Shown here piece by piece: positions 1 to 43,230 of a DNA stretch of 64,000 bases. The notes under the pieces are model-generated. The model worked only from the letters and a program-made list of their open reading frames with translations, ran no database searches and had not been told where the DNA came from. The DNA comes from Trinickia fusca (GTDB lineage Bacteria > Pseudomonadota > Gammaproteobacteria > Burkholderiales > Burkholderiaceae): the NCBI RefSeq assembly GCF_003628145.1, contig NZ_RBZV01000007.1, forward strand, positions 1 to 64,000, given 5' to 3'. The first letter of the stretch is position 1, and every line of letters starts with the position of its first letter. The translations under genes were made by a program, and so were the position numbers.

Positions 1-483
1 GCCGCCCGACGGCGAACGCGACAGCATGCCGATCCAGTAGAACAACGTGGCGAGCACGAACAGCGCGCTCATCCAGAGGATCGCCGATTGGCTCGAGAGG
101 AAATACTTGAGGAAGAAAGCCGAATCGGCGCGCGACAAGTCGCCCTGATACACCTGGATGGCGAACAGCGACAGCGCCGCGATCCCGGCGATGAGCTGCC
201 GCGCGCTCTTCCAGCGCCAGCCCAGCACGACGAGCGCCGGCACCGAGCACACCAGCACCAGCTTGTCGTAGTCGTTCATGTACGCCTGGTATCGCGAAAG
301 CGCGAAGCCGGTGCCTGCAACCATCGCGAGGGCAAACAGCCAGTCAAATGCACCGAGGCGCCTCAGGAAGGAGGGCGCGTCGTACAGGACGCTCGTTTGA
401 TCCGCGCTCGACGTGGGCCGAGGTCGATGCGTTATCGCTGGAGCCGGCACCGCGGCATCAGGAGCAGATGAGCTTGGTTTCAT
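1..483 (-). CDS. ccsB: Cytochrome c biogenesis protein CcsB, N-terminal part
   Basis: The open frame begins with ATG at 483 and runs off the left edge, giving 161 residues. A cytosolic tail rich in Pro, Ser and Thr is followed by FLRRLGAFDWLFALAMVAG, a segment characteristic of the N-terminus of betaproteobacterial CcsB. At least three hydrophobic spans follow. CcsB is the haem-handling membrane partner of ResB in System II cytochrome c maturation; it delivers haem to apocytochromes outside the inner membrane. The C-terminal WWD-type core lies outside the window. In the usual betaproteobacterial arrangement resB sits between a cytochrome c4 gene and ccsB, but here no resB intervenes. The cytochrome, Cyc2-like and haem-fusion genes just upstream are plausible clients. 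Confidence 0.8.
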   Translation of the reverse strand, partial: MKPSSSAPDAAVPAPAITHRPRPTSSADQTSVLYDAPSFLRRLGAFDWLFALAMVAGTGFALSRYQAYMNDYDKLVLVCSVPALVVLGWRWKSARQLIAGIAALSLFAIQVYQGDLSRADSAFFLKYFLSSQSAILWMSALFVLATLFYWIGMLSRSPSGG

Positions 484-568
484 GGGATTCACCGTGGTGA
501 CGACGACTGCAGCGATGAGTACGCGCTTCGAGATTCACTCACGAGCGCGTACGGCCGGGCATAAAAAG

Positions 569-630
569 GGTGCCCGTCGCGGGGAGGACGGGACACCAAG
601 AAAGGTGCCCGCCGAGGGGGACGGGGCACC
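569..630. terminator. Two tandem GC-rich hairpins between cytochrome c and ccsB
   Basis: GGTGCCCGTC (569-578) can pair with GACGGGACACC (587-597). GGTGCCCGCC (604-613) can pair with GACGGGGCACC (620-630). The two hairpins are near copies, lie in the 189-bp gap after the cytochrome c stop, and have no clear T tract. They may be a partial terminator, an mRNA-stabilising structure or a small dispersed repeat. Nothing else is recognisable in this gap. Confidence 0.45.
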
Positions 631-672
631 CAAACTGTTGACCGCTTGTCGATCCGGCAACATGCCGCTTGC

Positions 673-1344
673 TCATTGATCAACTAGCGGGCTGGTAGGC
701 GCCTCCCCTTCTGGCGGAAACGCCTCGACGAACGCGGCCACCGCGCGCATGTCCTGGTCCGACATGTTGGCGCACACAGCCTTCATGACTGCGCCGCGCG
801 GCCGGGTGTCGGTTTGCCGGAAGACATCGAGCTGCTTCATGACGTAGTCCGCATGCTGACCCGCGAGTCGGGGAAACTGATTCATCCCCTCGCCATGCTG
901 GCCGTGGCACGAAACGCATGCTGCGACGCCCTTGTCAGGCAGGCCCGAGTGATAGATCGCGTTGCCTTTGTCGATGAGCGCGAGATCGCTCGCGTCACCG
1001 AGGACCGTGGACTGACTCGAGAAATACGTTGCAAGCGCGTCGATCTGCGCGTCGGTTAAATGTGTGAAGCCCCACATAAAACGCTGGGCGTTCGGGTCGG
1101 CTCGCGAATGGCTCTTGAAGTCCGTCAGTTGATCGATCAGGTATTCCTTTTGTTGCCCGGCAAGCTTCGGAAAGGTAGGCGATACCGAAACGCCGGTCAC
1201 GCCGTGACAGTTCGAGCACACCTGAAGGGCGATGGTCTTTCCCGGCACGTCCGGATTGTCGACTTGCCGCGAATGTTCCAGGTCTTGGCAAGCCGACCCG
1301 GTGAGCAGCATTCCGATGGAGATGATATGTGCCACTTTGTTCAT
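673..1344 (-). CDS. Dihaem cytochrome c (c4-like), secreted or lipid-anchored
   Basis: The 223-residue protein has an N-terminal export signal ending in LLTGSAC, which could be a weak lipobox. Two class I cytochrome c domains follow, with haem sites CSNCH (43-47) and CVSCH (143-147). The length and duplicated layout match cytochrome c4, a periplasmic one-electron carrier that usually feeds terminal oxidases. RFMWG near residue 90 and AVMKA near 186 could supply the axial methionines. An AAGGAG ribosome-binding site precedes the start. Position between the Cyc2-like gene and ccsB suggests it carries electrons from the outer-membrane proteins across the periplasm (inference). Confidence 0.88.
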   Translation of the reverse strand: MNKVAHIISIGMLLTGSACQDLEHSRQVDNPDVPGKTIALQVCSNCHGVTGVSVSPTFPKLAGQQKEYLIDQLTDFKSHSRADPNAQRFMWGFTHLTDAQIDALATYFSSQSTVLGDASDLALIDKGNAIYHSGLPDKGVAACVSCHGQHGEGMNQFPRLAGQHADYVMKQLDVFRQTDTRPRGAVMKAVCANMSDQDMRAVAAFVEAFPPEGEAPTSPLVDQ

Positions 1345-1410
1345 GTCAGCGATCTCCTTACTGCAATTTTTGCGGTGCTCGGTAGCGCTTTCATTTCCCG
1401 CAAAGACGCA

Positions 1411-2799
1411 TCACCATGAAACGGCCCATAGATAGACGAAGAGCGTGTCGTTGTCTCTCGCATTGCGCCCGTTGCCGTCGTAGTTGGACGTGGCCCCGAG
1501 AAACTTGTTGAAGTGCGTGTATTGCACGCCTATTCGAATGCGTTGATTCGGCATCCAGAATATTTCCGGCATCCAGCCTTGCGTGTTCGGGTGGAAGTTC
1601 GCACTGGCCGCGTGGGCTGTACTGTCTGGGCTGCCTGTCGTATTGAAGAACGAAAGACTGATGCCGTACTTCGACTGGTAGACGTACGATGTCTTGAGCC
1701 TCAGCGAATCGAGATTCCCCGACGTGCTGTCGCTAAAGACGAAATTGTTCGGATCGTGGACGTTCTCACGCACATAGCGAGCTTGCGCGGTGACCGTGTG
1801 TGGCTCCAGCAGGTACTCGTACTGCGCGTCCATACCGAAATCGCGGTAGCGCGTCACGCCCTGCCCAAAGATCGGGAACTGGTTGGGGTCGTTCGGATAG
1901 GCGTTCACGTTCAACAGGAACGCGCCCACCATTGCGCTATGGGCCCCCCAGTCTCGCGTCAACGCGATGCGCGCATAGGGGTTGTAGCCGCGCAGATAGA
2001 TCTGCGGGTGAGCGGCGTTTCCTTCACTGTTGCCATGACTCAGGAACGACCAGATGCCGTCGGCCGTGCTGTACGCGGTCAGTTCCGCATAGAGCGTCTT
2101 GTTCCAATACATGTAGCCGCCGATACCTGCCACCTGTGTCGCAAGACTTCCTTCGATGACTGGCAGGTTCGGGATCTTGGCGACCGGACTGATCGTCGAT
2201 GAAATGTACGGATAACCCCATGCCGGCGCGGAGTTCCAGACGTCCTGCACAGTCGGATTGTTGTGCAGCGTCACGCCGAGGATGAGGTCGTTTGCCTCCC
2301 CGATGATCCGATCCACGAACCGGAAGTCGGTATTGTCCGATCCCCAGTGGCCTTGCCATTTGTTCGTCACGCCATTCTGGTGGTCGTAGTTCGTGTAGGT
2401 AAACTGGGCGAAGCCGCCGATCTTGTCGGTGATCTTTCCGGCGAGGAAGATGCTCGCAAAGTCGAATATCGGCAGACCATCCTTGGTGTTGATGGGATTG
2501 CCGTTCGCGTCGCTGTTGGCTCTCGTCTTGCTCAGATCGCCGATCGCCATCGCGGCGATCGGGATCGTGCGCTCGCCAAGCGTATAGCCATTGAGCTTGA
2601 ACATGCGCCCATAGGGCGTGAGCTCAGGAAATTGCCCCCCGGCGTGGCACGCCACACAACTTTGTCCGGTTTGGCGCGCAAAGATCGGCAGCGCGTGTGC
2701 GGTGGTCGCCTGCAGCAACGCCAGGATCATGAATGCGAGTATCCAGCCACCGCGCAGCAAGTGAAGACATGCTGCGTGACTGACAAGAACCTTTGTCAT
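1411..2799 (-). CDS. Cyc2-like fused monohaem cytochrome-porin
   Basis: The protein has 462 residues. A signal peptide (about 1-36) is followed by LPIFARQTGQSCVACH, with the haem site CVACH at 48-52, and then GRMFKLNGYTL. This matches the N-terminal signature of Cyc2, the outer-membrane Fe(II) oxidase in which a short haem domain plugs a beta-barrel of about 16 strands. The remaining 400 or so residues alternate polar and aromatic positions and end in W, as an outer-membrane barrel does. I chose ATG 2799 because GGGAG sits a proper distance upstream; a TTG 42 bases further up lacks a ribosome-binding site. It is flanked by two other haem proteins and lies in the same strand run as the MCO genes. 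The likely role is taking electrons from an external donor to the periplasm. The donor is not shown by the sequence. Confidence 0.8.
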   Translation of the reverse strand: MTKVLVSHAACLHLLRGGWILAFMILALLQATTAHALPIFARQTGQSCVACHAGGQFPELTPYGRMFKLNGYTLGERTIPIAAMAIGDLSKTRANSDANGNPINTKDGLPIFDFASIFLAGKITDKIGGFAQFTYTNYDHQNGVTNKWQGHWGSDNTDFRFVDRIIGEANDLILGVTLHNNPTVQDVWNSAPAWGYPYISSTISPVAKIPNLPVIEGSLATQVAGIGGYMYWNKTLYAELTAYSTADGIWSFLSHGNSEGNAAHPQIYLRGYNPYARIALTRDWGAHSAMVGAFLLNVNAYPNDPNQFPIFGQGVTRYRDFGMDAQYEYLLEPHTVTAQARYVRENVHDPNNFVFSDSTSGNLDSLRLKTSYVYQSKYGISLSFFNTTGSPDSTAHAASANFHPNTQGWMPEIFWMPNQRIRIGVQYTHFNKFLGATSNYDGNGRNARDNDTLFVYLWAVSW

Positions 2800-2863
2800 G
2801 GCTGTTTCTCCCGCACCGCGCGCGATGTCTTTATTGTGCAAATGCGCGATCAGAATCGGGATG

Positions 2864-2890
2864 GGTCAACCTCCTCCTCTTGCGGTAGGG
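2864..2890 (-). promoter_or_regulatory. Shared 27-bp upstream element, copy 2 (before the Cyc2-like gene)
   Basis: Plus-strand GGTCA at 2864 is followed after 11 bases by TTGCGGTAGGG ending at 2890. A copy of identical length and about 21/27 identity lies at 18717-18743 upstream of the first MCO gene. Here it sits 65-91 bases before the Cyc2-like start, in the 115-bp gap after the cytochrome-PBP gene. It may be a regulator site or promoter element giving the last genes of the locus their own transcript. Confidence 0.4.
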
Positions 2891-2914
2891 GAAGCGCTAG
2901 ATGTCGTGCCGACA

Positions 2915-4627
2915 TCACGGCACGATCCAGTCCCCATCGGCCACGAGCTTGAAATGATCCGGTCCGGCAAAGCGGACGATATAGCCGCCCTTGGACGCGA
3001 ATGTCTGCCCCGGCGCCAGCGTCAGGCGCGGATAGTAGCCCGTCAGAATGCGGCGTTCGAGCATGTCCTGAATCCGCTCCACCAGGTAGTCCCTCACGAA
3101 CGCATCGACCATATGGCTCAGTGTCTCTGCGAGCAGACCGCATGCGAGATAGGTGTCGGCCTGCACCTGCGGCGCAACCATCGGAATCTGTCTGATCGAG
3201 AACCAGCCGAACGCGTAGTCGACACGCACGCGCCGCCCTTCCGGCAAATCGAACGGGTACGCGAGGCGCGTGATTGCGCGCCAGCTGGCCGGCACGGGTG
3301 TGCTATCGAGCCCGCCCAGCAGGCCCGACATGAACACGGTGTCCGTCGCCGGGGGGATTCGCGCGAGCGCCGCAACGTCGGGCGGACGCAGCCACAGTAC
3401 GAGCACGTCCGAGCGCGGTATCCCATGCATCGCGCGCGCGACGCTCTCGCCGGGAGCAAGCGCGTGGTTCGATACCGCAATGCCGCGAGCCTTCAGTGCT
3501 GCGGCAAGCGCTTGCGCGCCGCGCTCGCCGTTGTCTCCCGCACGATAGACCTGCCACACGGTCTTCACGGCTTTCGCCACTTTCGTCGCCTGTGCTGGCC
3601 GCGCTCCGGCTTCATCGACAATGCGCGCCGCAATCAGGTCCGACTCGAGCAACACGCCTTTCGAGAAGTACACGGAATAGAAATCGTGATCGGTTTCGAC
3701 CGGCACCTCGACGTTGGGGAAGAGGCACGGCACGGCCTCCTGCTCGCAGAAGTCGTGAATCGGCGCCCAGTTTCTGCCACCGAGACCCGACAACACCGCG
3801 AACACCGGCTGCCGGGCCAGAAACTGCGTGAGCTGCTCATGCCAGGTGTCCGGTGGACCTTTGAGCTCCCACACGTGCAGTTCCCAGCGGCGATTCACCA
3901 TGAACATCATCTTGCGCGACGAACGCAACGCCGGTACCGCACCGAGCGGAAAGACGTTCTTGTCGGCGAAGTAGTGCCTGAGGACATCGAGCATGCCCGC
4001 CCGTTTCACCGGGTCGGCATCGGGCGTGATGATCGTCGCGAAGTGCAGCACGGTATCCGTGACGCCTGCCGGCCTTCGTTGATCGAGGTGTTTCAGATAG
4101 TCGATCAGCGCCTGCATATCGGCGTCGTTCAGCGCGTACTGCGGCATCAGGCTGCTGAGCGGCTTGCCTTCCGAGTCGATCCCTTCCCGAATGGCTCGCG
4201 CGATCGTCGCATCCGTGTACGGTTCGCGTTCGGCGCGCATCCCGGGAACGTACGGCAAGTCGGCATCTTCCGCGTGTGGGGCGCGCGGCTCGACCAGGTA
4301 GCGCCAGGTGATGGGCGGGATGCTGCTGTTGCCCTCCCTGGAGCCCAAGCCACTGCGGCGATGGCAGTTGACGCAGGCAGCGGATACGCCTTGCAGGCGC
4401 ACGCCGTCTTGATGGATTGCTTCAAGCGGTTCGCCCGAACTCAGGACGCCCTGCTGGTAGAGGGCCTCTCCAGCGCTCGCCGTCGCGACCGGCTGTGCGG
4501 CCGGCGCGCAATACGCCTCGCCCACAGGCGTGATTAGCGCGGCGAGCAACGCGCATCGAGCGAGCAATCGCGCAGCAGGCGAGGGTGGCGATGCGCGGCC
4601 TCGCGTCCAGTTTCCCGCGCGCTGCAT
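2915..4627 (-). CDS. Cytochrome c domain fused to a periplasmic-binding-protein-like domain
   Basis: The 570-residue exported protein has a signal sequence within the first 40 residues. A class I cytochrome c domain follows (haem CVNCH at 85-89, probable axial Met 161 in SSLMPQ). From about residue 190 it resembles a type 1 periplasmic-binding fold of the branched-chain amino-acid receptor type, with alternating alpha/beta segments such as QPVFAVLSGLGGRNW. Such fusions could couple ligand sensing to electron transfer, but no function is established by the sequence. The start is only 2 bases after the stop of the preceding LolA-like gene, so the two are surely co-transcribed. The ligand is unknown. 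Confidence 0.72.
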   Translation of the reverse strand: MQRAGNWTRGRASPPSPAARLLARCALLAALITPVGEAYCAPAAQPVATASAGEALYQQGVLSSGEPLEAIHQDGVRLQGVSAACVNCHRRSGLGSREGNSSIPPITWRYLVEPRAPHAEDADLPYVPGMRAEREPYTDATIARAIREGIDSEGKPLSSLMPQYALNDADMQALIDYLKHLDQRRPAGVTDTVLHFATIITPDADPVKRAGMLDVLRHYFADKNVFPLGAVPALRSSRKMMFMVNRRWELHVWELKGPPDTWHEQLTQFLARQPVFAVLSGLGGRNWAPIHDFCEQEAVPCLFPNVEVPVETDHDFYSVYFSKGVLLESDLIAARIVDEAGARPAQATKVAKAVKTVWQVYRAGDNGERGAQALAAALKARGIAVSNHALAPGESVARAMHGIPRSDVLVLWLRPPDVAALARIPPATDTVFMSGLLGGLDSTPVPASWRAITRLAYPFDLPEGRRVRVDYAFGWFSIRQIPMVAPQVQADTYLACGLLAETLSHMVDAFVRDYLVERIQDMLERRILTGYYPRLTLAPGQTFASKGGYIVRFAGPDHFKLVADGDWIVP

Positions 4628-4629
4628 AG

Positions 4630-5466
4630 TCAGGGTGTCGGATGTCCGGCGCCAGGCAGCGTCGGCGAGGCATCGACGTCGATCGAAACCGATTTGCCGC
4701 GCATCGGCGGCGCCGCGGGTTTCGTGAAGAGCCCATCGTCCAGCGACGGATTGAGCGACACCTTGTCGATCGTCAGCTTGTCCTTTTTCTCGGACGCCAC
4801 TGCGCCGCTCTCGATCTCGAGCGGTATCTGCAGCCCCTCGACGCTCCTGAAGTCGCTGTAACTCACCTCCACGACGACCGTCTGCCCGAGCGGGGTGCGC
4901 ACCTGGCGGTCGACCTTCACGTCAAGAAACGTTTGAGCGTCGACCCACACATGGCGGGTCACGCCGGAAGGCAGCTTCGCGGCGAGACGATACGCATCGC
5001 GGCCGCCCACCTGATCGGCACCCTCGAGCGTGACGCCGATACCCTTCGCCTCATGGTCGATCAAGAGCCCGTCGATCACCTGCTCGTCGCGCGCGGACGT
5101 CACCTCATCCATCGTGTACGGCCGGGGAGTGGCGCTGCCCATGCCGTTCGGGCCCAGCTTCCAGCCTTCCTTGCCGTCGAACACGCGCACAGATCGCTGG
5201 TTGAATACGGTGACCTCGAAGCGTGTCTTGTTCGGGCGCTTCATGGCGAGGACGAACGGCAGATCCGGTGCAGGCGCATTGGCGCTATCCACGTGGCCGG
5301 ACCAGATCATGGTCTGGACTTTGCGCCATGCGTCGAGACCGCCTCTCGCGGCCACGTTTTTTTCGACGATCTGATCCACGCTCAGATCCTGCTTGGGTAT
5401 CTGCTCGCTCGCGAACACGACGGACGCGAGGCAACCGGTTAGCACCCATAGGGCGAATGGTTTCAT
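4630..5466 (-). CDS. LolA/LppX-fold secreted protein, second of a pair
   Basis: The 278-residue protein starts MKPFALWVLTGCLASV, which contains a good lipobox (VLTGC) and could instead be cut after VFA. The body has the half-barrel pattern of LolA/LppX proteins, which bind lipid or lipoprotein acyl chains: IVEKNVAARGGLDAWRK, then repeated beta strands (MKRPNKTRFEV, RVFDGKEGWKLG). It is a paralogue of the gene immediately upstream (5497-6405). I prefer the start at 5466 over one 15 bases earlier because GAGG is correctly spaced before it. Possible roles are chaperoning a lipidated or outer-membrane component of the locus. Confidence 0.65.
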   Translation of the reverse strand: MKPFALWVLTGCLASVVFASEQIPKQDLSVDQIVEKNVAARGGLDAWRKVQTMIWSGHVDSANAPAPDLPFVLAMKRPNKTRFEVTVFNQRSVRVFDGKEGWKLGPNGMGSATPRPYTMDEVTSARDEQVIDGLLIDHEAKGIGVTLEGADQVGGRDAYRLAAKLPSGVTRHVWVDAQTFLDVKVDRQVRTPLGQTVVVEVSYSDFRSVEGLQIPLEIESGAVASEKKDKLTIDKVSLNPSLDDGLFTKPAAPPMRGKSVSIDVDASPTLPGAGHPTP

Positions 5467-5496
5467 GGCCGTTGACCTCATCGGGGCCCCCGACGG

Positions 5497-6405
5497 CTAG
5501 TGGCTCGAGCTCGGGCTCGGGTGCGCACCCGGGCTCACACTCGGGCGTGGGCTCGGGTTCGCGTTCGGGGCCGCGCCGAGGACCGGCACCGGGTGCGTCA
5601 CTTTCGCCGCGGTGAGCTGTGGCTTGGCAAAGAGGGCGTCGTCCGCCTGCGGGTTCAGCGCGACCTTATCGATGGTCAGCTTGTGCGTTCCCCTGGCGCC
5701 GACGACAACCGTCTCGAGCGTATGCGGCATGACGAGGCCGCTTTCCTTCCGGTAGTCGCGATAGAAAATGGCGACGTTGTGCATCTTGCCGTCGAGCTTG
5801 CGCGCGTCACCATCGATCTTCAGTTCGAGAAAGCTCGACGCGTCGATCCATACGCGGCGTGACGTGGTGTCTTTCATCGTCAGCTTCAGCACGTACGCGC
5901 GGTGGCCTTCGATCATTTCCATCCCGAGCACGTCGATTCTCGTGCCCTTCGCCGCGTAGTCGACGAGCGGACCGTCCAGCTCGGTCCACGATGCGGCCGT
6001 TTTGGCCTCCGCGGGCGTGTAGGGCTCTACTTCGTTGCGGCCGAGGAAGGGCCTGACCTTCCAGCCCTGGGTGCCGTCATAGACCTGGAACGCCGTCTGG
6101 TCGTTGAAACGGATCTCGATGCGGCTCTTGTGCGGGCGCTTGAACGTCATCGTGAACGGCAGCGGGGTGTTCTTCGTGCCGCCGGCCTCGAGCTGCCCCG
6201 ATACCGTCATCGTGTTGACCGCGCGCCATGCCTGCAGGCCGCCGCGCGCCGCGACGTTCCGGTCGACGATCTGCGCCGCGCTCAGATGCGCCGCTGCTGC
6301 GGTCTGTGCGCTTGCCGCAGAAGATCCGGCGAGCGCCGCCGGACCGTACGTCAGAAGCGTCGCTATCGACGCGGCCTGGATCGCCAGCGATAAAAAGCGG
6401 TTCAT
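5497..6405 (-). CDS. LolA/LppX-fold secreted protein, first of a pair
   Basis: The 302-residue exported protein has a signal peptide ending near ALAGS. Its core is AQIVDRNVAARGGLQAWRAV followed by MTFKRPHKSRIEI and YDGTQGWKVRP, aligning along its length with the neighbour at 4630-5466. The C-terminus is a Pro/Ser-rich tail of about 25 residues that the paralogue lacks. A GGGAGA ribosome-binding site precedes the ATG. The gap to the next gene is 15 bases. By fold it is a periplasmic lipid or lipoprotein carrier; the cargo is unknown. Confidence 0.65.
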   Translation of the reverse strand: MNRFLSLAIQAASIATLLTYGPAALAGSSAASAQTAAAAHLSAAQIVDRNVAARGGLQAWRAVNTMTVSGQLEAGGTKNTPLPFTMTFKRPHKSRIEIRFNDQTAFQVYDGTQGWKVRPFLGRNEVEPYTPAEAKTAASWTELDGPLVDYAAKGTRIDVLGMEMIEGHRAYVLKLTMKDTTSRRVWIDASSFLELKIDGDARKLDGKMHNVAIFYRDYRKESGLVMPHTLETVVVGARGTHKLTIDKVALNPQADDALFAKPQLTAAKVTHPVPVLGAAPNANPSPRPSVSPGAHPSPSSSH

Positions 6406-6421
6406 AAGTGATCTCCCTGTC

Positions 6422-6503
6422 GGCCAGAGTTGGCGCTTTAGTGCCTTACTCTGGCCCCATGCTGCGGTTGCTTGGAGTTAGCGCTTTAGCGTTTACTCCA
6501 AGC
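6422..6503. repeat. Pair of REP-like palindromic elements
   Basis: Unit 1 is GGCCAGAGT (6422-6430) pairing with ACTCTGGCC (6448-6456) around an inner GGCGC/GTGCC stem. Unit 2 is GCTTGGAGT (6470-6478) pairing with ACTCCAAGC (6495-6503) around TAGCGCTTTAGCG. Both share the core AGTT(A/G)GCGCTTTAG. Related units lie at 48594-48676. This looks like a dispersed intergenic palindrome family. Here it fills the 136-bp gap inside the putative operon and may act as a processing or attenuation site. Confidence 0.65.
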
Positions 6504-6541
6504 CCGCAGCCCTTCATCTATGCACGAGCGTTGTCGCGCAA

Positions 6542-7057
6542 TCATTCGACAATCAGCCCGTCGACATGGAACGACCCCACGAATACGTCGACGCGCTCCC
6601 CGGCCTTGATCAGCCCACCTTTGTTCGAAAACACCATCCAGTACGCCTGGCCGACTTCCAGCGGACCGCTCTGGCGTAGCGCGCCGATCTTGTCCATCAC
6701 CGGGATCTCGAGTAATGCATGGCTCGTTCGCCCGAACATCAAGGCCGTCGCGGTCTTTTCGCCGAGCGGCCGCGCCGCCACCGGATCCGTCACGCGATAG
6801 CTGAAGCGGATCAGGTTGCCCGATGCCGTGCGGCGCACGCTCACTTGGTCGATGCCTTGCATCAGCTCGTAATAGCCCTTCGCGCGCTGCGGCAAGTTCG
6901 CCGGCGAGTACGGCGACTGCTTCACCGCCGCCCCCGCCACTTTGTGCGCCGCGTCCGCTCTTTCCTCGCCTGCGGCCGGCTGAAGCGCGGCCGCAGCGAG
7001 GTAAGCACTGCCGGCGATCAGCACTGCCAGCGGCGTCAGAGGGCAACGCGTTCTCAT
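6542..7057 (-). CDS. Small secreted protein of unknown function, coupled to the giant protein
   Basis: This 171-residue protein starts at ATG 7057, which overlaps the stop of the giant gene (ATGA), so translation is probably coupled. A signal peptide (about 1-30, ending LQPAAG) is followed by a domain with GYYELMQGIDQVSVRRTASG and ends FHVDGLIVE, which looks beta-rich. I recognise no family. The coupling suggests a dedicated partner or chaperone of the giant protein. A longer open frame extends upstream of 7057 but runs antisense-like through the giant gene and is not real. Confidence 0.6.
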   Translation of the reverse strand: MRTRCPLTPLAVLIAGSAYLAAAALQPAAGEERADAAHKVAGAAVKQSPYSPANLPQRAKGYYELMQGIDQVSVRRTASGNLIRFSYRVTDPVAARPLGEKTATALMFGRTSHALLEIPVMDKIGALRQSGPLEVGQAYWMVFSNKGGLIKAGERVDVFVGSFHVDGLIVE

Positions 7058-13000: not shown

Positions 13001-15306
13001 CCGCCGTTCGTGAACGAGTTGTAGGCGTTGCCCGGCAAGATCGAGATGTAATAGCGCTTGGTCGGATCGAGTGCCACCTGTGACGGATCCACCGGCACCT
13101 GTTGCGCCGCGGTTGTCCGGCATACGCCGTTGCCGATATCGCACACCGCCGGCTTGTGGGTCTGGCTGGCCGGATCGTAGACCGTCTGGCCCGATTCGCA
13201 CGCTGCGACGCCGACACACCCCGCCGCCACCACCGGCATGTAGCTCGTGTGGAAGTTCGCGCCGAGACTCGGCACCGGCAAGGGCGGACACGTCGCCGGA
13301 CGCGTGGGCGAGTTCACCTGGCAGGCGGGGTCGATCTGGAACGTACGGTCTTCCTCGATGATCCAGCGGTAGTCGCTGATCTTCACCGGCGTGTTGCCCG
13401 GTTGCGCGCTGGGCGCATCCAGCACGTTGACGACGAGTCCGCTGCCGCCCTTGAATGTCACCGTCACGGTCGCCGCCTGGCTCGCCGTGTTCTGCGCATT
13501 CACCGCCTGGTACTGGAACGTCACGTTGGCGCTTGCCGCATTGCCGACCGGCGCCGTCGTCGGCGTCGCCGTGAACGAGCCGTCCGGATTCAGCGTAACG
13601 GAGCCGCCTGTCGGGGTGCCGACCAGGGTCGCGGTAAGCTGCAGTCCAGCCGGATCGCTGGCGTACGCGAGCACACCGGGCTCGCTGATCTGCAGACGCG
13701 ATGCGATGTTGCTCGTATAGGCGGCGTTGCCGGCCGTGGGGGGTCCGGACAGACACCCGTTGCCCGACGTGCAGGCCGTGAGCGTCACCGTCGCAAAGAC
13801 GTTCGCATTCCCGTTCACCTGGTACTGGAAGCTGTCAGCTGTCGTGCCGGCATTGGGCGTGTAGACGAACGTGCCGTCCGGGTTCAGCGTGAGCGTGCCG
13901 CCCGTCGGCGCCGTCTTCAGTTGCACGCCGTAGACGTTGACGTCCTTCGCCATTACGCCTCTCGCCGGGTCGGACACGGTCAGTGTCTTGCCGGGAACGA
14001 AGTAATACGTGGCATTCGTGGCCGACGCATTCGCCACGGCGCCGGCCGCCGCCGAGGTCGCGTTGTTGACGCTGATGTAGCCCTGCATGCCGCCGTCGCG
14101 CGCGTTGTTCGTCGAAAGGCTCAGCTGGCGATCGAACACGGGCAGCGCAGAAGCGCTTGCGGGCGGCAAGTTGACCAGCGCGTCGTACACCTTGCCGGCC
14201 GCCATAAATACTTCCGACTGGATCCGCGGATTGCCGGGCAGCACGTTGCCGTCCTCGGCGATCAGCGAGAAGCCGGAAACCGGTGGGGTGCCCGTTTGCG
14301 CGCCGACCACCGACGGCACGTGCATGCGCAGCCCCGCGTTGACGAAGCGAAGCATCACCGGCCCGGTGGTTGCTGTGCTCGTGGCGGCGAACGTGGAAGC
14401 GCCCGGATTGGTCCGGTCGAACGAGACGCCGTTGATCAGGTAGTAACGCGGATCGTAGTTCACCGTGGGCGGATAGCAGGTGCCGAACGACGTCGACTGC
14501 GGATTGCCGCAGCCGCCCGGCTGCCCGGACCAGACTTGGGTTTCGCTGAAGCCCGGCATCGCGACCGCGGCGGCCACCGCTGCGTTCTGCACCGGGTCGA
14601 TTTCGCTCAGCACGAGCGGCACGTCAGTGTCGTAGCTGATGCCCGGATAGGCCTGCGCGGGCGTCGTGCCGTTGGCTGGCGTTCTCACCACCAGCACGCC
14701 GTAAAGCCCCATCGGCCCCTGGATCGACGGGTGCGTGCCCGACTCGATCAGATAGGTGCCAGGATTCAGGTTGTTCCACGTGAGGGCGGTGGTGCTCCCA
14801 TGCGCCACTTCAGTGGCAAACGACTGCACGCGAGGCCCTTGTGCTGGCGGCGTAAAGGTCGCGCCTCCAGGCGCGGTGCCGGCGACTGGCCACGTGGTCG
14901 CCGTCTGCGTCGGGTGCGTCGGGCTCGGCGTGCTTGTCGCCGTCCTACCCAGACCGCCGCCCAGCTGCCCGACGACGACGAGCGACGTCGGCACAGAGGC
15001 CGGCAGGCTGTTGGTGAGATTGATCGTGAGCTGCCCAGGCGGCACCGTGATCACCACGGGCGACCAGTTCGCGCCAGCCCCGGGGTTCGCGGCCGCACAC
15101 GCGGCAGGCGCAACGGCCGCCGACGAGCACGTGTAGCCCCACATCGGCACGGCCTGTCCGTCGGGCAACATCGCAGTGCTGGCCTTCGCCGTCAGACTGA
15201 CGGTCGCCTGCGCGAATGCCATGCCGCTCGCAGTCAGCAACACGGAAGCTGCAATCGAAGTCTTAAGCACACCTAACAGGTTTGCCTTGAGTGTGGTGGA
15301 TCTCAT
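7054..15306 (-). CDS. Giant secreted protein: ligand-less MCO-like head, SdrD-B and TIG modules, beta-helix tail
   Basis: The protein has 2750 residues and a signal peptide at about 1-32. Residues 35-210 and 225-415 look like two cupredoxin domains of an MCO (PGTYLIESGTHPSIQGPMGLYGVLVV is MCO domain-1-like in outline), but no HxH or HCH copper motif is present. Residues 440-620 hold two cadherin/VCBS-like repeats (GGTLTLNPDGTF, GGSVTLNPDGSF). SdrD-B-like modules follow, with TFLDTNGNGVGD near 1148. A TIG/IPT domain lies near 1835-1915, and a right-handed beta-helix with many short N-rich coils spans about 1920-2560. It ends with a FGTRRPQLGGFDIGAVEL block and an (LPA)n tail. A GGGAG site precedes the ATG. 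The likely role is a surface scaffold for the two MCO proteins encoded just upstream (17-bp gap). Confidence 0.75.
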   Translation of the reverse strand: MRSTTLKANLLGVLKTSIAASVLLTASGMAFAQATVSLTAKASTAMLPDGQAVPMWGYTCSSAAVAPAACAAANPGAGANWSPVVITVPPGQLTINLTNSLPASVPTSLVVVGQLGGGLGRTATSTPSPTHPTQTATTWPVAGTAPGGATFTPPAQGPRVQSFATEVAHGSTTALTWNNLNPGTYLIESGTHPSIQGPMGLYGVLVVRTPANGTTPAQAYPGISYDTDVPLVLSEIDPVQNAAVAAAVAMPGFSETQVWSGQPGGCGNPQSTSFGTCYPPTVNYDPRYYLINGVSFDRTNPGASTFAATSTATTGPVMLRFVNAGLRMHVPSVVGAQTGTPPVSGFSLIAEDGNVLPGNPRIQSEVFMAAGKVYDALVNLPPASASALPVFDRQLSLSTNNARDGGMQGYISVNNATSAAAGAVANASATNATYYFVPGKTLTVSDPARGVMAKDVNVYGVQLKTAPTGGTLTLNPDGTFVYTPNAGTTADSFQYQVNGNANVFATVTLTACTSGNGCLSGPPTAGNAAYTSNIASRLQISEPGVLAYASDPAGLQLTATLVGTPTGGSVTLNPDGSFTATPTTAPVGNAASANVTFQYQAVNAQNTASQAATVTVTFKGGSGLVVNVLDAPSAQPGNTPVKISDYRWIIEEDRTFQIDPACQVNSPTRPATCPPLPVPSLGANFHTSYMPVVAAGCVGVAACESGQTVYDPASQTHKPAVCDIGNGVCRTTAAQQVPVDPSQVALDPTKRYYISILPGNAYNSFTNGGGNPQPVDPTQPTGTLRQFSIAQDCPSGAGGTDFAPGKGKCGNGMGGAPISPGQNSVNVLLEESPFPTAKVSVFVFEDDAPLNGEVDVSGGTDAFGSAREPGLGGFEIKLWDDAGGSGQPTGQMTYDMFNMPLSNSLQGTIDPITKLNACPISTSTDGLVGMIPTCPKYESDGKTLSPLVGQAVIANLMPGRYGIVATPAADRIARGEEWLQTNTLDGEKAHDSFIKIGGPAYFQEFGPAGFHVSIGFANPKIINARLPLLCATSTCNNGLKGRVTNLHYSRPPDEHLYGSQSRKPLSFTQCYVSVGDPDGEDYAFTKCNADGTFSFTGLPPGITRITVFDQWNDQIMDGLAAAVTLGGGLTTDAGDLAVLQWQTNLYTRTFLDTNGNGVGDPSKPGLALLPTNIRFRDGSYSDFNVTDGNGYASFNEEFPLFNWYVVDTDLTRFKQTGVHVVYDAGGPPDGTPGGGTSTIAANFANTLESVHLPTNLRVPGAVYCNDADCNDRSGTNPSTGRVDPPWVTTMGWQGFSGQNSFIEFGKTPYAANENGGIRGEVVYASTRPFDDPMLLVHTKWTPDVPGVTVNLYQEGIAADGSTSLKLIDTTKTASWDDWSQGFRSDGIPNMNCPGQSTSDPYFFTLQNTTMWLDPQHRALPANSQFKCYDGMHVFNQVQPAPFDGMYQFPSVTSRDPHTGLPTATNCTICQPNPSKDGTQMLPPGKYVVEIIVPPGYELVKEEDKNILIGDNYIAPVTQQFAGIGDVYILPDQAAMNATYNPNNAQNMTSNLGSGPHAEGDTGDIERFWPCVGDLRIVPDYISLFPGSQEVSPFAGASRHLCDRKEVELTDQSAVQAKFWIFSSTHVAAHYTGFMLDDFSSEFDPYSPQFGEKFAVPNVPVSFKDFAGNEISRTYSDQWGIFNGLTYSTWQVNPPNPTGYAPTMMVACMNDPYMPDPTHPGQTIQDPLYNPAYSQFCYEIPFMPGQTQYMDTPVVPVSAFAEGYDQVDCAYPDGTPAISTVTGDTIPGTTGGTGPWVSAAGRTLTITSLGTQQVPNNAYTGPSAAKAPFNQKFITRNYGFGQQAGTVTIAGLPALVKSWSDKTITVIVPPLPACTIQQRGVTTPTQCGELVIAAANGKRSIDAVTVTVGGKTPTYVSGENNTGNALQTAIDNATPGDMIIVGPGVYKEMLVMWKPLRLQGVGATAVTVDANPHPSGKLDPWRRQIGCLFGDSLNGGLISASNPYDPTGAYSCSASMQRRIDGIPFEPTSGWDFNLNGNLAETLIEPTLMGAYEGAAITVLGKGVKDVLVGGVLTQDQNCVANGICTPLTNSSADCTAYPSNFLCNPSRIDGMTFTNSSQGGGGIYLHGWNHYTEVSNNRVFANAGTLSGGIIVGQVEVPDGTIASDGVTQMPFLYNTYVNVHNNAVTSNAAYGDEINSTTPSSAGGVTFCSGADYYKFNYNWVCGNISSGDGGGVAHFGFSYNGDLSHNWILFNQSNNPTLPTYGGGLIVQGVPPDGTFCENAATDVDCAPQLSDGVGPGITIDGNLIVGNTAESGKGGGLRLQNVNGTDVQRSPNNSSTWYQVKVTNNIIANNVAGWAGGGVSLQDAVAVNFINNTVVSNDSTASAGVLFNTSAASQANIGPPTCTTSGSETTCQPTTTSTYEPAGLETARHTQNLVAAFTNPNVACPAGNPGCTTFSNPVLTNDLFWQNRTFYIAVGGLDPGIAGLQNIVTLNPPLNQAGQATGYCDPKAVYWDIGAFGDTGPTNHGSGLTMHPQYSILTDAGDYPAAHNSGSNPGVVHQYCNGARVPPEAGGIGITVPPGIADTVLPNPLFSLLPSATPDEGNNWINMSYGPLSLFNEASTGTQLNVLLGNYTIQPTSPAVGNATAAGAPNHDIFGTRRPQLGGFDIGAVELVRPAVLAGQPYPLALGGSQLGTLLGLLQGLLPAVVGAGGLPALPALPALPALPAIAPLAPVQTTPPGANTLTGAQQ
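7124..7168 (-). repeat. 9-bp tandem repeat coding Leu-Pro-Ala units
   Basis: Five imperfect 9-bp units (plus-strand consensus GCAGGTAGC) near the 3' end of the giant gene encode a run of Leu-Pro-Ala triplets. Such a run is likely a flexible or extended C-terminal linker and is prone to slippage. Confidence 0.7.
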
Positions 15307-15323
15307 CGCGTTTCTCCCCGCCT

Positions 15324-16931
15324 CTAATTCGATTCGTCGATCAGGAACACCTGCGGATCGACGAGCATCATCATCATCATTCCGCCAGGGAAGATGTTGT
15401 TCGTGGTGATCTCGCGCTCATTGTGCGAGTGCCACATGAACGCAAAGCCTGCTTCCGTTTGCGGCGGATTCACGGACGTGCCGCTCGGCGGCGTCGTGCC
15501 CGTGGGTGAGGTTGCGCGCATGGTCGCATCCGGTCCGAGATAAGGACTGCCGCCGTACCAGAAGCCGTTGGTCAGCACATGCGAGTCCGGCAACGTGACC
15601 GGGCCGCCGCTGGCGACCTTGCCGAACGGATGCGTCTCGAGCGCCTTGTTGTGATCCGCGCACCACTCGTAGTAGTTCGGCGCTGTCGGATTGGCGGTGT
15701 AGTAGCCGTTTGCATCCGGGATGCAGACGCTGCCGTCGCCGGGGTAATGCCCGTACACGTCCCAGTTCAGGCCCTTGCCCGTCCAGTAGAAGATCCCGTC
15801 CATCGCAAGGCCTGGCGTCGTGGTGGTCGTGAACAGCAGCGGGCCGGCTACCTTGGTCGCGTCCGTGTTCGCGAGCAGCATGTTGCCGTCGCGCGCGAGC
15901 ACGCGTACGTGATTGCCGTGCTCGTGGAACGGATGCTGCCAGCGGCCGGTGCCGATGATCCGCAGCAGGACCAGCTCGCCGGGGTGCATGTGCGGGTTGC
16001 CGTTGTACGGCTGGTTCGGATACTGCGCCGCGTAGTTCGGGTCCATGTCGTCCGGCATCGAGCGGCCGTTCACCATGAAGTACGCCGGGTGATAGGGCTC
16101 CGTCTCGACGGTCATGCAGCCGGTCGGCTGCGTGCACGCGTTGCCGGCCTGCTGCTCCGCCTGGGTGTGAATGCGCGGATCCATCTCGGAGAACTGGAAC
16201 AGATACTCGCGGTCGTAGCACGCTGCGCTGTGGTTGTAGGCCGCAGCGGCGTTGCGGAAGTCGGGCTGTCCGTCCAGCAGCTTGCGCGTTCCCTGGATCG
16301 GGTTGCAGCCGGTCGGCACGGCGAGCGTGCCGGGCGACGAGGTCGGCAACACGATGATCGCGCCGAAGAGCCCCATCTCGATCTGCAGATCGCCCTGCGT
16401 GCCGCTGTAGTAGGCGTGTGTGCCGGGCGTGGCGGCGACGAAGCTGTAGGTCACCGTGGCGGTATGGGACGCCTCGCGCGTGAGCAGCCCCTGCACGCCG
16501 GTCGGCGTGCCGGAGCAGACCTTCGTCGTCGGATCGATGGTGCCCATGCATACGTCGAACCCGGGAAAGAGAATCGACGTGTTGCCCGCTGCCGCCGGCA
16601 GATTGTTGGTGAGGGTCACCGTGATGATGTCGCCCTGGTTGACGATCAGCGTCGGGCCGGGAATCTGCATGGTCGGACAGTTCGCACCGGCGATGTTGGG
16701 TGGCGAGAATCCGGCCGGCGCGGTATTGCAGCCGTAGCCCCACGAATAGACGCTATTGCCGTCCGGCTGGGTGATGCGGTTCGCCTCGGCCCGCAGGTCG
16801 AAATGCGGGCCCGTGATGCCGGGCGCGGCCGCATGCACTTGCACGTAGAAGAGCGCCGCCACGCCGAACAGCGCAAGCCGTCCGAACCGCGCGAGCGTCG
16901 CGATCCATGTTTGGTGAGTGTCGTGTCCCAC
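15324..16931 (-). CDS. Multicopper oxidase-like protein carrying only the L3/L4 trinuclear ligands
   Basis: The 535-residue protein starts at GTG 16931 with AGGAGA upstream and has an N-terminal signal or membrane anchor (15-35). Domain 1 (about 40-200) has the MCO outline (MQIPGPTLIVNQGD; GTHAYYSGTQGDLQIEMGL), but the usual HWHG and HSH sites are gone. Domain 2 holds HPFHEHG (333-339), the L3 motif, and WHSHNE (500-505), an L4 motif with Ser in place of the type 1 Cys. It therefore keeps four trinuclear-cluster histidines but no blue-copper cysteine. The neighbouring protein at 17016-18584 carries the complementary ligands. Pairing of the two would complete an MCO centre (inference). Confidence 0.82.
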   Translation of the reverse strand: MGHDTHQTWIATLARFGRLALFGVAALFYVQVHAAAPGITGPHFDLRAEANRITQPDGNSVYSWGYGCNTAPAGFSPPNIAGANCPTMQIPGPTLIVNQGDIITVTLTNNLPAAAGNTSILFPGFDVCMGTIDPTTKVCSGTPTGVQGLLTREASHTATVTYSFVAATPGTHAYYSGTQGDLQIEMGLFGAIIVLPTSSPGTLAVPTGCNPIQGTRKLLDGQPDFRNAAAAYNHSAACYDREYLFQFSEMDPRIHTQAEQQAGNACTQPTGCMTVETEPYHPAYFMVNGRSMPDDMDPNYAAQYPNQPYNGNPHMHPGELVLLRIIGTGRWQHPFHEHGNHVRVLARDGNMLLANTDATKVAGPLLFTTTTTPGLAMDGIFYWTGKGLNWDVYGHYPGDGSVCIPDANGYYTANPTAPNYYEWCADHNKALETHPFGKVASGGPVTLPDSHVLTNGFWYGGSPYLGPDATMRATSPTGTTPPSGTSVNPPQTEAGFAFMWHSHNEREITTNNIFPGGMMMMMLVDPQVFLIDESN

Positions 16932-17015
16932 GGCGCTTCTCCTAAATGCAGGCCTTCCTGTCCGGGTCCATGGCAGAGCAGCCGTGGACCGCGTTTATCA
17001 AGGGCAATGGGCGTC

Positions 17016-18584
17016 TCATAGCGTGCATACCTTCGTCTTGGGATCCACCGACTTGCAGATGTGCACCTCGGTCATCAGACCGCCGAAGTTTTCCTGGTCG
17101 TTCGCCAGATGATCCAGATTCGGCGTGTACAGGTAGAAGACTTGCCCTGACTGATACTTCGTCGTGTCGCTGGCGTCGAGGATCAGATCGAGCGACTCTC
17201 CGCCGCCGAGCGTGATCGAGTTCGTGTAGTAGGTCATGTCGTTGCCGGCCATGTCGCGCAGCAGCCGCGCATTGATGGCTACCACGTGCATCGGAATGCC
17301 GAGCGAAGCGAGCGTCTGATATTCGGTGACGTCGAGATCGGAAATCCGCAGCAGCACCTTGCCCCCGGCGGGAATATTGATCAGCGACGGCAGCGGTTGC
17401 GAGAAACGCGGCACGCCGTCGGACGCCGGCGTCGAAAGCGGATTCGGATTCACCGTGTCCGGATAGCTGCGGCCGTTCAGCAGGAAGAACTTGTCTTTCA
17501 TGTCGGTGAACGGTTCCGGATTGAACGTCATGCCGACGAAGTGGAAGTTCGGATCGAAGCCGTGGATCTGCACCGGATACTCGACGTCGTAGGCGGTCGA
17601 GCCGTTGCCGTCGTTGTAGGCGTAAAGCGTTGGCGTGCCGCTCAGGTTGTTCGCATGCAGGACGCTGTTCTGCGGCGGCACCGGTGTCGAGCACAGAATG
17701 TCGTTGCCGCACCGGGTGCGTAGATCCTGCTGCTGCGCCTGCAGCGCGTTGTACAGCGACTGGCCGGCGGGGACGCGATTCTGGCGCGGTCGCACAAAGA
17801 TCTGGCCGACCATGCCCATCTGCAGGTGCTCCGGCGGCGTGATGTGGCAGTGCCAGAAGTAGGTGCCCGCGTCCGGCGCGAGGTAGTAGTACGTGAAGCT
17901 CGCGCCGATGTTGATCGCGACCGACGCATCCGGCACGCCGTCATAGAACGACGAGGCATTCGGATAGCCGTGGAAGTGCACCGTATGCTTCTCGAACAGG
18001 TCGGGACGCATGATCATGCCGACGTTGGTCAGCGTGAGGAAGAACTCGTCGTCCTCGTCGATCGCCATCATCGGCGCGGGCTCGTTGCCGTTCATCACGC
18101 CGATGTCCATGATCGTCCGAGGGTCGACATGGCCGGTGAGCTGACCGGGCGGAACGGATTCGGGATCGGGCGTGAGACCGACCGCGCCGTTGTATGTCGG
18201 ATCGGTTCTGGGATCGCCTACGGTGTTGAACACCGAGGGGAGCTGCGTGCCGGGCAGCCCTGCCTTGATGTCGGCGAGACCGGACAGCGGCCCGAAAGCG
18301 AACAGGTAGGTCTGAATGCCATTGGCCATCGTCGCGTAACCGTCGCCGCCCGAGATCTGCTGACACTTGATCGCACCGTTGACGACGCCTGTCGAGGTGG
18401 AGTTCTGTCCCGTGAAGGACGGCCCTGTGTACGCGGGTTCGCCAGCGCCGGGCGGCAGCGCCGTCGGATGAGACGGCGTGGTGCTCGGGCATTGAACCAT
18501 GAACGACTGGGAGAATGAGGGAATCGCGAACAGCATGAACGACAGTGCGGCCACACTGTTGCGACACCTGCGGATGCTGAACAT
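17016..18584 (-). CDS. Multicopper oxidase-like protein carrying type 1 copper and L1/L2 ligands
   Basis: The 522-residue protein has a signal peptide (about 1-26). Domain 1 contains KHTVHFHG (199-206) and FWHCHITPPEHLQMGM (243-258). His200, Cys246, His253 and Met258 fit a type 1 site, and HFH (203-205) plus HCH (245-247) are two of the four HxH motifs of a trinuclear cluster. Domain 2 (about 330-520) keeps the cupredoxin outline (DKFFLLNGRSYPDT) but has no HxH motif. The Cys-to-His loop is two residues longer than in laccases. GGAGG precedes the ATG. It is first in the minus-strand run. Alone it cannot build a normal MCO centre within one chain unless it oligomerises. Confidence 0.85.
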   Translation of the reverse strand: MFSIRRCRNSVAALSFMLFAIPSFSQSFMVQCPSTTPSHPTALPPGAGEPAYTGPSFTGQNSTSTGVVNGAIKCQQISGGDGYATMANGIQTYLFAFGPLSGLADIKAGLPGTQLPSVFNTVGDPRTDPTYNGAVGLTPDPESVPPGQLTGHVDPRTIMDIGVMNGNEPAPMMAIDEDDEFFLTLTNVGMIMRPDLFEKHTVHFHGYPNASSFYDGVPDASVAINIGASFTYYYLAPDAGTYFWHCHITPPEHLQMGMVGQIFVRPRQNRVPAGQSLYNALQAQQQDLRTRCGNDILCSTPVPPQNSVLHANNLSGTPTLYAYNDGNGSTAYDVEYPVQIHGFDPNFHFVGMTFNPEPFTDMKDKFFLLNGRSYPDTVNPNPLSTPASDGVPRFSQPLPSLINIPAGGKVLLRISDLDVTEYQTLASLGIPMHVVAINARLLRDMAGNDMTYYTNSITLGGGESLDLILDASDTTKYQSGQVFYLYTPNLDHLANDQENFGGLMTEVHICKSVDPKTKVCTL

Positions 18585-39674: not shown

Positions 39675-39687
39675 AAAGGGGGCGATC

Positions 39688-42180: not shown

Positions 42181-42308
42181 GCGCGCTCGGGGATAGGTCG
42201 TGCGCAACGCGGCGCGATGGCGGGTCAACCGTCGTCGCGCCGCGCTTTGTTGTGTTGCGTTTGTGTTGCGGAGATGGGGTTCGATCGATCTCAGAATTCG
42301 GGCTGTGC

Positions 42309-42340
42309 ATATTTCAATATTTCGATTAAGATGGAAATAT
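42309..42340. promoter_or_regulatory. Candidate ArsR operator overlapping the arsR start
   Basis: ATATTTC (42309-42315) and GAAATAT (42334-42340) form an inverted repeat around an AT-rich centre. The right arm reaches the arsR start codon, so bound repressor would block transcription of the arsR-arsC-aqpS unit. Confidence 0.6.
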
Positions 42341-42715: not shown

Positions 42716-42724
42716 GGCTCGACC

Positions 42725-43219: not shown

Positions 43220-43230
43220 AGTTCCCGCCT

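What the first reader, a model, noticed from the sequence alone, without database searches (positions are those of the whole stretch)
1..18584. Candidate outer-surface oxidation system: Cyc2-like haem-porin with multicopper proteins, a giant scaffold and dedicated cytochromes
Ten consecutive minus-strand genes encode two MCO proteins, a 2750-residue secreted MCO-headed protein, a coupled small secreted protein, two LolA-like proteins, a cytochrome-PBP fusion, a Cyc2-like haem-porin, a dihaem cytochrome c and CcsB. Cyc2 is established as an Fe(II) oxidase, and large MCOs (MnxG/MofA) as Mn(II) oxidases. I know of no described system that joins the two. The set offers a full path: oxidise a donor outside, move electrons through the porin, then through periplasmic cytochromes. 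Both the substrate and the direction of flow are inference.
Basis: partly seen in the sequence, partly recalled or inferred. Interest (0 to 1): 0.92.

Follow-up and report, generated by a model that had tools for sequence, protein, structure and literature searches.

The report
Exported split copper oxidase beside Cyc2
Soil bacteria related to Paraburkholderia carry a conserved gene set for a copper enzyme that seems to be built from several different proteins, shipped out of the cell by its own export machine, and often encoded next to an iron-oxidising type of haem-porin; its core resembles a gene cluster already reported to be more abundant when an iron bacterium grows on magnetite.

Summary
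The ten genes are real and form a conserved unit. The Cyc2-like gene carries the published Cyc2 signature and co-occurs with McoA in Burkholderiaceae: 38 of 42 McoA genomes have one, 32 of 42 on the same contig 12.9-16.6 kb away. The unit is larger than the finding: a two-component system and a type II secretion system go with it (25 of 28 other loci; in the window's genome on another contig end). The novelty claim is half right: the three-cupredoxin core fits a cluster described in Sideroxydans lithotrophicus ES-1 (Slit_1812-1818), more abundant on magnetite and reported in Paraburkholderia and Ralstonia (PMC12016527). New here: the copper ligands are split. McoA holds the type-1 site and half of the trinuclear cluster, McoB the other half without type-1 cysteine, the giant none; invariant in every sequence that could be scored. 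I infer one oxygen-reducing site shared by two gene products, exported onto a giant scaffold. Cyc2 is an optional partner, so a linear donor-MCO-porin wire is not supported. Substrate unproven; solid Fe(II) or Mn(II) likeliest.

The parts
17016..18584 (-). McoA, 522 aa, secreted two-domain cupredoxin protein; N-terminal domain with type-1 copper site and half of the trinuclear site
   Evidence: PF07732 E 2e-14; two-domain MCO 3g5w E 2.4e-14; ligands invariant in 29/29 rows, one region in twice
17970..17987 (-). McoA H200-x-x-H203-x-H205: T1 and T2/T3 copper ligands
   Evidence: 29 of 29 rows
17811..17852 (-). McoA H245-C246-H247...H253...M258: T3 and T1 copper ligands
   Evidence: 29 of 29 rows
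15324..16931 (-). McoB, 535 aa, secreted two-domain cupredoxin protein; C-terminal domain with the other half of a trinuclear site, no T1 cysteine
   Evidence: PF07732/PF07731; ligands invariant
15918..15935 (-). McoB H333-P-F-H336-E-H338
   Evidence: His in 28 of 28 scorable rows
15423..15431 (-). McoB H501-S502-H503 (serine where a T1-bearing domain has cysteine)
   Evidence: both His in 26 of 26 scorable rows; Ser invariant in 13 of 13
7054..15306 (-). Giant scaffold, 2,750 aa: cupredoxin-like head without copper ligands, Ig/cadherin-like (PF17963, PF17892), SdrD_B (PF17210), weak NosD-like stretch and choice-of-anchor Q
   Evidence: in four distant loci head and scaffold are separate genes
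6542..7057 (-). Small protein, about 171 aa, start overlaps the stop of the giant
   Evidence: no Pfam; found in 34 of 36 genomes (the stretches of the other two end before it)
5497..6405 (-). LolA-like protein 2
   Evidence: PF17131 below cut-off; conserved in the family, not found in four distant loci
4630..5481 (-). LolA-like protein 1
   Evidence: PF17131 below cut-off; conserved in the family, not found in four distant loci
2915..4627 (-). MofC-like monohaem cytochrome c with a putative periplasmic-binding part, 570 aa
   Evidence: PF00034 E 2e-5; MofC-like described as Cyt c + periplasmic binding domain in PMC5566968
1411..2841 (-). Cyc2-like fused cytochrome-porin, 476 aa
   Evidence: signature motif; 16 strands in a low-confidence model; conserved
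2644..2694 (-). Cyc2 signature ALPIFARQT-GQS-CVACH, residues 50-66
   Evidence: C62, C65, H66 invariant in 30 of 30 rows
673..1344 (-). Dihaem cytochrome, c4/Cyc1-like
   Evidence: PF00034 E 4.2e-21 and PF13442, two stretches each
1..492 (-). N-terminal part of a cytochrome c assembly protein (CcsB/CcsA type), cut by the contig end
   Evidence: relative L139:13090-14313 matches PF01578

Best explanation
The locus encodes an extracellular heteromeric multicopper oxidase and its export and redox partners. McoA, McoB and the head of the giant protein are three diverged copies of one two-domain cupredoxin unit. In known two-domain MCOs three identical chains form a trimer with each trinuclear copper site between domain 1 of one chain and domain 2 of the next. 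Here the chains differ, and only one such site is left, between McoA domain 1 (which also holds the type-1 copper) and McoB domain 2; the head has kept the fold and lost the copper. The head ties this single-site oxidase to a long adhesin-like, beta-helix-like scaffold. The proteins go through Sec and fold in the periplasm, with LolA-like and small proteins as likely helpers, and a dedicated type II secretion system, controlled by an adjacent two-component system, puts them on the cell surface. There the type-1 copper oxidises an extracellular one-electron donor, most likely solid-phase or complexed Fe(II) or Mn(II), and passes electrons to O2. The MofC-like cytochrome and, where present, the Cyc2-c4 pair work on the same donor or its dissolved product and lead a share of electrons into the cell. 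Shown: gene set, conservation, split ligands, linkages. Inferred: assembly, export substrate, regulation, donor, electron split.
For: Split ligands invariant from 97% down to about 35% identity. The three chains are homologous (hhalign E 1.3e-11 McoA-head, 2.1e-22 McoA-McoB, 1.6e-37 McoB-head) and match two-domain MCOs such as 3g5w. In 2dMCO trimers residues of two protomers bind the trinuclear site, and type C has T1 in the N-terminal domain (PMC13151041 passages). Four distant loci encode head and scaffold as separate genes but keep three cupredoxin chains. Seven-gene core complete in 18 of 22 stretches read, L088 and L104 being one region. T2SS genes at 25 of 28 other loci and at the end of contig C16, which lines up with C39 on a relative; secretin and T2SSE by Pfam in the own genome, T2SSF too in CH34; three pseudopilin-type N-termini. 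The ES-1 cluster of the same make-up is more abundant on magnetite than on Fe(II)-citrate and predicted extracellular (PMC12016527).
Against: No complex was modelled: single-chain McoB gave mean pLDDT 33.8, and complexes cannot be predicted here. McoA and McoB could each pair with other partners. The tie to ES-1 is by described make-up and order, not by comparison with Slit sequences; that paper's main candidate on magnetite is MtoAB, and the cupredoxins are high mainly at the late time-point. T2SS genes were not found at 3 of 28 loci (G070, G559, G605); at G501 and G431 they lie some 25 kb from mcoA with an ATPase only 55-56% identical, hardly above the unrelated 53% copy elsewhere in the own genome. 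LolA-like genes were not found at four distant loci. Cyc2 has no match in 4 of 42 McoA genomes and is not nearby in 6 more. No metal phenotype is known to me for the window's organism.
Confidence: 0.5

Rival explanations
1. One reading: donor electrons enter the surface copper proteins and run inward through the Cyc2-like porin and the periplasmic cytochromes to the inner membrane.
For: The Cyc2-like gene follows the MofC-like gene by 73 bases on the same strand and lies near mcoA in 32 of 42 McoA genomes; a c4-type cytochrome follows Cyc2, and Cyc1 of Acidithiobacillus is a cytochrome c4 (PMC10654088 Table 1 passage).
Against: A complete T1-trinuclear ligand set spends electrons on O2. The core persists without any Cyc2 match in 4 of 42 genomes and without a nearby one in 6 more. 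In 6 of the 32 linked genomes Cyc2 and mcoA lie on opposite strands. Cyc2 is argued to take dissolved Fe2+ that enters its pore (PMC8406198 passages).
Confidence: 0.15
2. Surface laccase or copper-detoxifying oxidase: the split MCO oxidises phenolics, lignin fragments or Cu(I), and the scaffold binds plant polysaccharide or cell wall.
For: Best PDB sequence matches are two-domain MCOs, laccases and copper nitrite reductases; some relatives are root-nodule or soil species (recalled from the names); a Rieske/VanA_C oxygenase gene lies near mcoA in the window.
Against: The Rieske gene and ORF 18822-20105 were found in none of the other loci searched. Steady company of c-type cytochromes and, in 32 of 42, Cyc2; abundance of the ES-1 cluster on magnetite.
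Confidence: 0.15
3. Two unrelated neighbours: an MCO-scaffold-secretion island beside which a separate cyc2-c4-ccsB module has come to lie several times.
For: Cyc2-c4 pairs occur without the MCO core in the stretches L113-L118 and L120 (L119 had no hit); the linked label needs at least 4 changes on a tree of 30 Cyc2 rows; in G313 and G138 the two modules are on different contigs.
Against: 34 of 38 genomes with a Cyc2 match of 60% identity or more also have McoA, against 8 of 360 others (kinship not corrected); linkage spans 7 of the 8 genera with McoA.
Confidence: 0.2

Closest known systems
Cupredoxin cluster Slit_1812-1818 of Sideroxydans lithotrophicus ES-1 (Keffer et al. 2025, PMC12016527; three tandem MCO genes also in He et al. 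2017, PMC5566968)
   Same: Three adjacent cupredoxin genes, two with MCO motifs, the third larger, without motifs and with adhesin- and polysaccharide-lyase-like parts; small proteins; a cytochrome (mofC-like in He et al.); predicted extracellular. The authors report similar clusters in Paraburkholderia and Ralstonia.
   Different: SCO1/SenC gene in the ES-1 cluster, not among the window's ten genes; no Cyc2 in the described cluster (ES-1 Cyc2 genes are Slit_0263-0265). The parts of the text that I read do not mention split ligands, and the word 'secretion' does not occur in it; Fig. S4 could not be seen.
Two-domain multicopper oxidases, type C (for example 3g5w; its type is recalled)
   Same: Two cupredoxin domains, T1 in domain 1, trinuclear site between domain 1 of one chain and domain 2 of another.
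   Different: Described as trimers of one protein with both halves on each chain; here the two halves are on two gene products and a third chain has none.
mofABC / OmpB clusters (Leptothrix, Geobacter)
   Same: MofC-like cytochrome; extracellular MCO; in C. metallidurans CH34, G421 and G398 also a PPIC-type isomerase as MofB is a PPIase.
   Different: He et al. state that the ES-1 three-MCO set is not homologous to MofA/OmpB; no PPIase in the window or on the C16 end.
Cyc2 iron oxidase
   Same: Signature motif, one haem, 476 residues, 16 predicted strands; followed by a c4-type cytochrome as in cyc2-cyc1.
   Different: Cyc2 cluster (1-3) and substrate not assigned here; linked to an MCO locus.
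Atypical type II secretion of OmpB in Geobacter sulfurreducens (recalled)
   Same: T2SS that handles an outer-surface multicopper protein.
   Different: Here the system is encoded beside its presumed substrate.

Membership tests
Cyc2 | AxPxFAR[Q/K][T/Y] upstream of CxxCH, called unique to Cyc2 | tested here: met
   ALPIFARQTGQSCVACH, residues 50-66; definition from PMC8406198 passages
Cyc2 | CxxCH, PxL shortly after it, length at least 365 | tested here: met
   CVACH, PEL five residues on (source says four), 476 aa
Cyc2 | 16-stranded outer-membrane porin | tested here: inconclusive
   16 strands in the model but mean pLDDT 45.7; Foldseek top hits are outer-membrane porins at low TM-score
Cyc2 | Oxidises Fe(II) | not testable with these tools
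   needs assay
ES-1-type three-cupredoxin cluster (Slit_1812-1818) | Three adjacent cupredoxin genes, two with MCO motifs, third larger and without, with adhesin-like parts | tested here: met
   against the description
ES-1-type three-cupredoxin cluster (Slit_1812-1818) | SCO1/SenC gene in the cluster | tested here: not met
   None of the ten window genes matches it; the other loci were not screened for it except G575, which has one
ES-1-type three-cupredoxin cluster (Slit_1812-1818) | Sequence homology to Slit_1816-1818 | not tested
Two-domain MCO | Domain-1 and domain-2 halves of the trinuclear site on the same gene product | tested here: not met
   Domain-1 half only in McoA, domain-2 half only in McoB
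MofA/OmpB | Homology of the MCO to MofA | not tested
   He et al. 2017 report none for ES-1's three MCOs
MofA/OmpB | mofB-like PPIase in the cluster | tested here: not met
   None among the ten window genes; no match of the CH34 PPIase in window, L153 or L154; present in CH34, G421 and G398
MofA/OmpB | mofC-like Cyt c plus periplasmic-binding protein | tested here: inconclusive
   Cyt c matched, binding part without a profile or PDB match
Type II secretion system at the locus | Secretin, ATPase E, F and pseudopilins | tested here: met
   L153/L154 of contig C16; that C16 and C39 adjoin is inferred from G083

The most novel reading that the evidence does not exclude
A multicopper oxidase whose trinuclear copper site is assembled from two different gene products, a split counterpart of a six-domain MCO made of three unlike two-domain chains. 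It is mounted on a giant adhesive scaffold, exported by its own type II secretion system, and teamed with Cyc2 so that a cell can attack solid and dissolved metal at once.
Probability: 0.4. Interest if true: 0.8.

Novelty: new variant of a known kind. Interest (0 to 1): 0.62.

Why it matters
If right, it gives a mechanism to a gene cluster that, in the papers I could find, is known only as uncharacterised cupredoxins, extends it to common soil and root-associated bacteria and to the laboratory strain Cupriavidus metallidurans CH34, and makes two questions testable in tractable hosts: how bacteria oxidise solid Fe(II) or Mn(II) at the surface, and whether a multicopper oxidase can be split between genes with exactly one active site left.

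Tried and rejected
Working giant MCO: rejected, no HxH or HCH in 2,750 residues. 'Nothing described joins the two': rejected for the core (PMC12016527), kept for the linkage with Cyc2 and T2SS; the listings of searches showed me no paper on that linkage or on a split site, but I opened only seven papers in part, and the ES-1 paper's Fig. S4 and supplements were not readable. Co-occurrence as artefact of close kin: not removed; the Fisher value ignores kinship, and several named loci are the same genomes as (equal contig lengths), so the two counts are not independent. One origin of linked Cyc2: the tree (30 rows at hand, not every match) needs several changes and has very long branches (L091, L117), so I draw no origin from it. 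McoB structure from one sequence: useless. Cyc2 profile against PDB: no match. Cyc2 reference from a named iron-oxidiser chromosome: not available; the Acidithiobacillus and Acidiphilium plasmid proteins are annotated hypothetical and served only as distant relatives. McoB profile across the phylum: 2 of 398 genomes at E up to 1e-15, own included; McoA profile in the order: 7 of 349 at E up to 1e-20, own included. RNA families above gathering score: none. tRNAs: none.
Full report
WHAT IS THERE. The window is the left end of contig C39 of a 6.1-Mb genome; its nearest named relatives are Burkholderiaceae. Minus-strand genes, in order of transcription: mcoA 17016-18584, mcoB 15324-16931, giant 7054-15306, small 6542-7057, lolA2 5497-6405, lolA1 4630-5481, cytochrome-PBP 2915-4627, cyc2-like 1411-2841, dihaem cytochrome 673-1344, and the first 164 residues of a cytochrome c assembly protein. 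Spacing runs from a few bases of overlap to 180 bases, which suits one transcription unit (inference). Pfam finds MCO domains in McoA and McoB, cytochrome c in P0004 and P0002, Ig/cadherin-like and SdrD_B stretches in the giant, and LolA_like below cut-off; NCBIfam adds choice-of-anchor Q and a weak NosD-like stretch.

CONSERVATION. A pattern scan of the genome-contig collection with the Cyc2-like protein gave 17 loci. In 12 of 17 the giant (3' part), small, lolA2, lolA1 and cytochrome-PBP genes stand directly upstream on the same strand; in L025 they are present but inverted; in L014, L015, L016 and L026 they are not in the stretch held. Among 398 genomes of the family, 73 have a Cyc2-like match at E up to 0.001 and 42 have McoA at E up to 1e-30. 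After dropping one genome with a 67-residue Cyc2 match, 38 have both, 4 only McoA, 34 only Cyc2, 322 neither (Fisher p 1.6e-28, kinship ignored). In 32 of 42 the two lie on one contig 12.9-16.6 kb apart, 6 of these 32 on opposite strands. Six have Cyc2 on another contig or far off (G313, G138, G402, G383, G392, G271) and four have no match (G070, G166, G299, G338). The seven-gene core mcoA to cytochrome-PBP is complete in 18 of 22 stretches (L088 and L104 are one region of C. metallidurans CH34); three are cut by the end of the stretch, and L107 is a distant variant without lolA1 and cytochrome-PBP in the stretch (a cytochrome-PBP match lies further on). Outside the family six more core loci were found; none showed a Cyc2 match in the stretch read, and four of the six showed no LolA-like match. 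So the core is the constant part and cyc2-c4-ccsB the frequent but optional partner.

THE UNIT IS LARGER. In CH34 the genes upstream of mcoA include a response regulator, a histidine kinase, T2SSF, T2SSE and a secretin (Pfam), and a PPIC-type isomerase lies downstream of the cytochrome-PBP. Homologues of the T2SS genes were found at 25 of 28 other core loci, within about 30 kb of the core; for three of the 25 (OK233, G387, PGU19) only T2SSF was reached, and G501 and G431 are weaker cases. They were not found at G070, G559 and G605; seven named loci with short flanks were not counted. In the window's genome they are at the right end of contig C16 (secretin and T2SSE by Pfam; three pseudopilin-type N-termini). 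C16's end and C39's start lie in line on relative G083 with about 626 bases between them, inside the assembly-protein gene; I infer that the assembly broke there.

SPLIT COPPER SITE. In 29 McoA rows (one region in twice), down to about 35% identity, H200, H203, H205, H245, C246, H247, H253 and M258 are invariant; in McoB H333, H336 and H338 are invariant in 28 of 28 and H501 and H503 in 26 of 26 rows that reach them, with Ser between the last two in 13 of 13. McoA domain 1 aligns to domain 1 of the two-domain MCO 3g5w with the T1 and four trinuclear His in register, and McoB's HPFHEH stretch aligns to the domain-2 HAIHTH stretch of the same chain (weak score). McoA lacks the domain-2 ligands, McoB lacks the domain-1 ligands and the T1 cysteine, and the giant has no HxH at all. 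The three chains are homologous. Published 2dMCOs bind the trinuclear site with residues of two protomers (PMC13151041, passages). The simplest reading is a hetero-oligomer with one site. In four distant loci (G501, G605, G431, G654) the head and the scaffold are separate genes while the three cupredoxin chains stay.

THE HAEM-PORIN. The defining Cyc2 motif is present and conserved. The model shows 16 strands and resembles outer-membrane porins, but its confidence is low. Relatives include plasmid proteins of Acidithiobacillus ferrooxidans and Acidiphilium at about 32%. It is a Cyc2 family member by signature; iron oxidation is untested.

WHAT IS KNOWN. Keffer et al. 2025 (PMC12016527; part 1 of sections 8 and 9, and passages) describe Slit_1812-1818 of ES-1: three cupredoxin proteins, two with MCO motifs, one larger with adhesin- and lyase-like parts, SCO1/SenC, a cytochrome; more abundant on magnetite than on Fe(II)-citrate; similar clusters in Paraburkholderia and Ralstonia; MtoAB is their main candidate. 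He et al. 2017 (PMC5566968; sections 13 and 19 and passages) describe MofC-like proteins and the ES-1 trio as not homologous to MofA/OmpB. Passages only were seen of PMC8406198, PMC10654088, PMC11412304, PMC9040806 and PMC13151041. The window's core fits the ES-1 description in gene kinds and order. The linkage with Cyc2, the T2SS beside it and the split site were not seen in the papers listed.

MECHANISM. Because the ligand set is complete across two chains, the oxidase should reduce O2 by itself; this makes a one-way wire through the porin unnecessary. A scaffold, an export system, abundance on a mineral in a relative, and steady company with c-type cytochromes point to oxidation of a solid or bound metal at the cell surface, with Cyc2-c4 taking dissolved Fe(II). 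The donor, the assembly and the share of electrons that reach the cell remain inference.

Noticed in passing
window 39042-44438 (+): Arsenic cluster: arsenite oxidase small and large subunits (TIGR02694 173.5 bits, TIGR02693 1292 bits), two LMWPc/ArsC-like proteins and an aquaporin-type channel.
   Followed up: partly
window 1 / contig C39 left end and L154 (contig C16 right end): The cluster is cut by an assembly gap of about 626 bases as measured on relative G083; the likely continuation is at the end of C16.
   Followed up: yes
L014, L015, L016, L113: cyc2-c4-ccsB module without MCO genes in the stretch, in P. nodosa kin; G313, G138 and G402 carry McoA on another contig.
   Followed up: partly
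L116, L117, L118, L120: A second group of Cyc2 relatives in the family, about 40-46% identical, paired with a c4-like cytochrome and without the MCO core in the stretch read.
   Followed up: partly
L038 (G023:C45:415543-416943) and G416:C5:95805-96443: Cyc2-like matches reported with one stop inside; described only.
   Followed up: no
window 18822-20105 (+): Secreted-looking protein that reads like a sedolisin-type peptidase to me (recalled); no Pfam or NCBIfam match.
   Followed up: no
window 48535-54560 (+): RND efflux set: AcrB-type pump, HlyD-type adaptor, OEP channel.
   Followed up: no
window 55515-56225 (+): Imm52-like immunity protein, PF15579 E 3.1e-7.
   Followed up: no
L168 (G559): Two adjacent cytochrome-PBP matches follow the core in this distant locus.
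   Followed up: no
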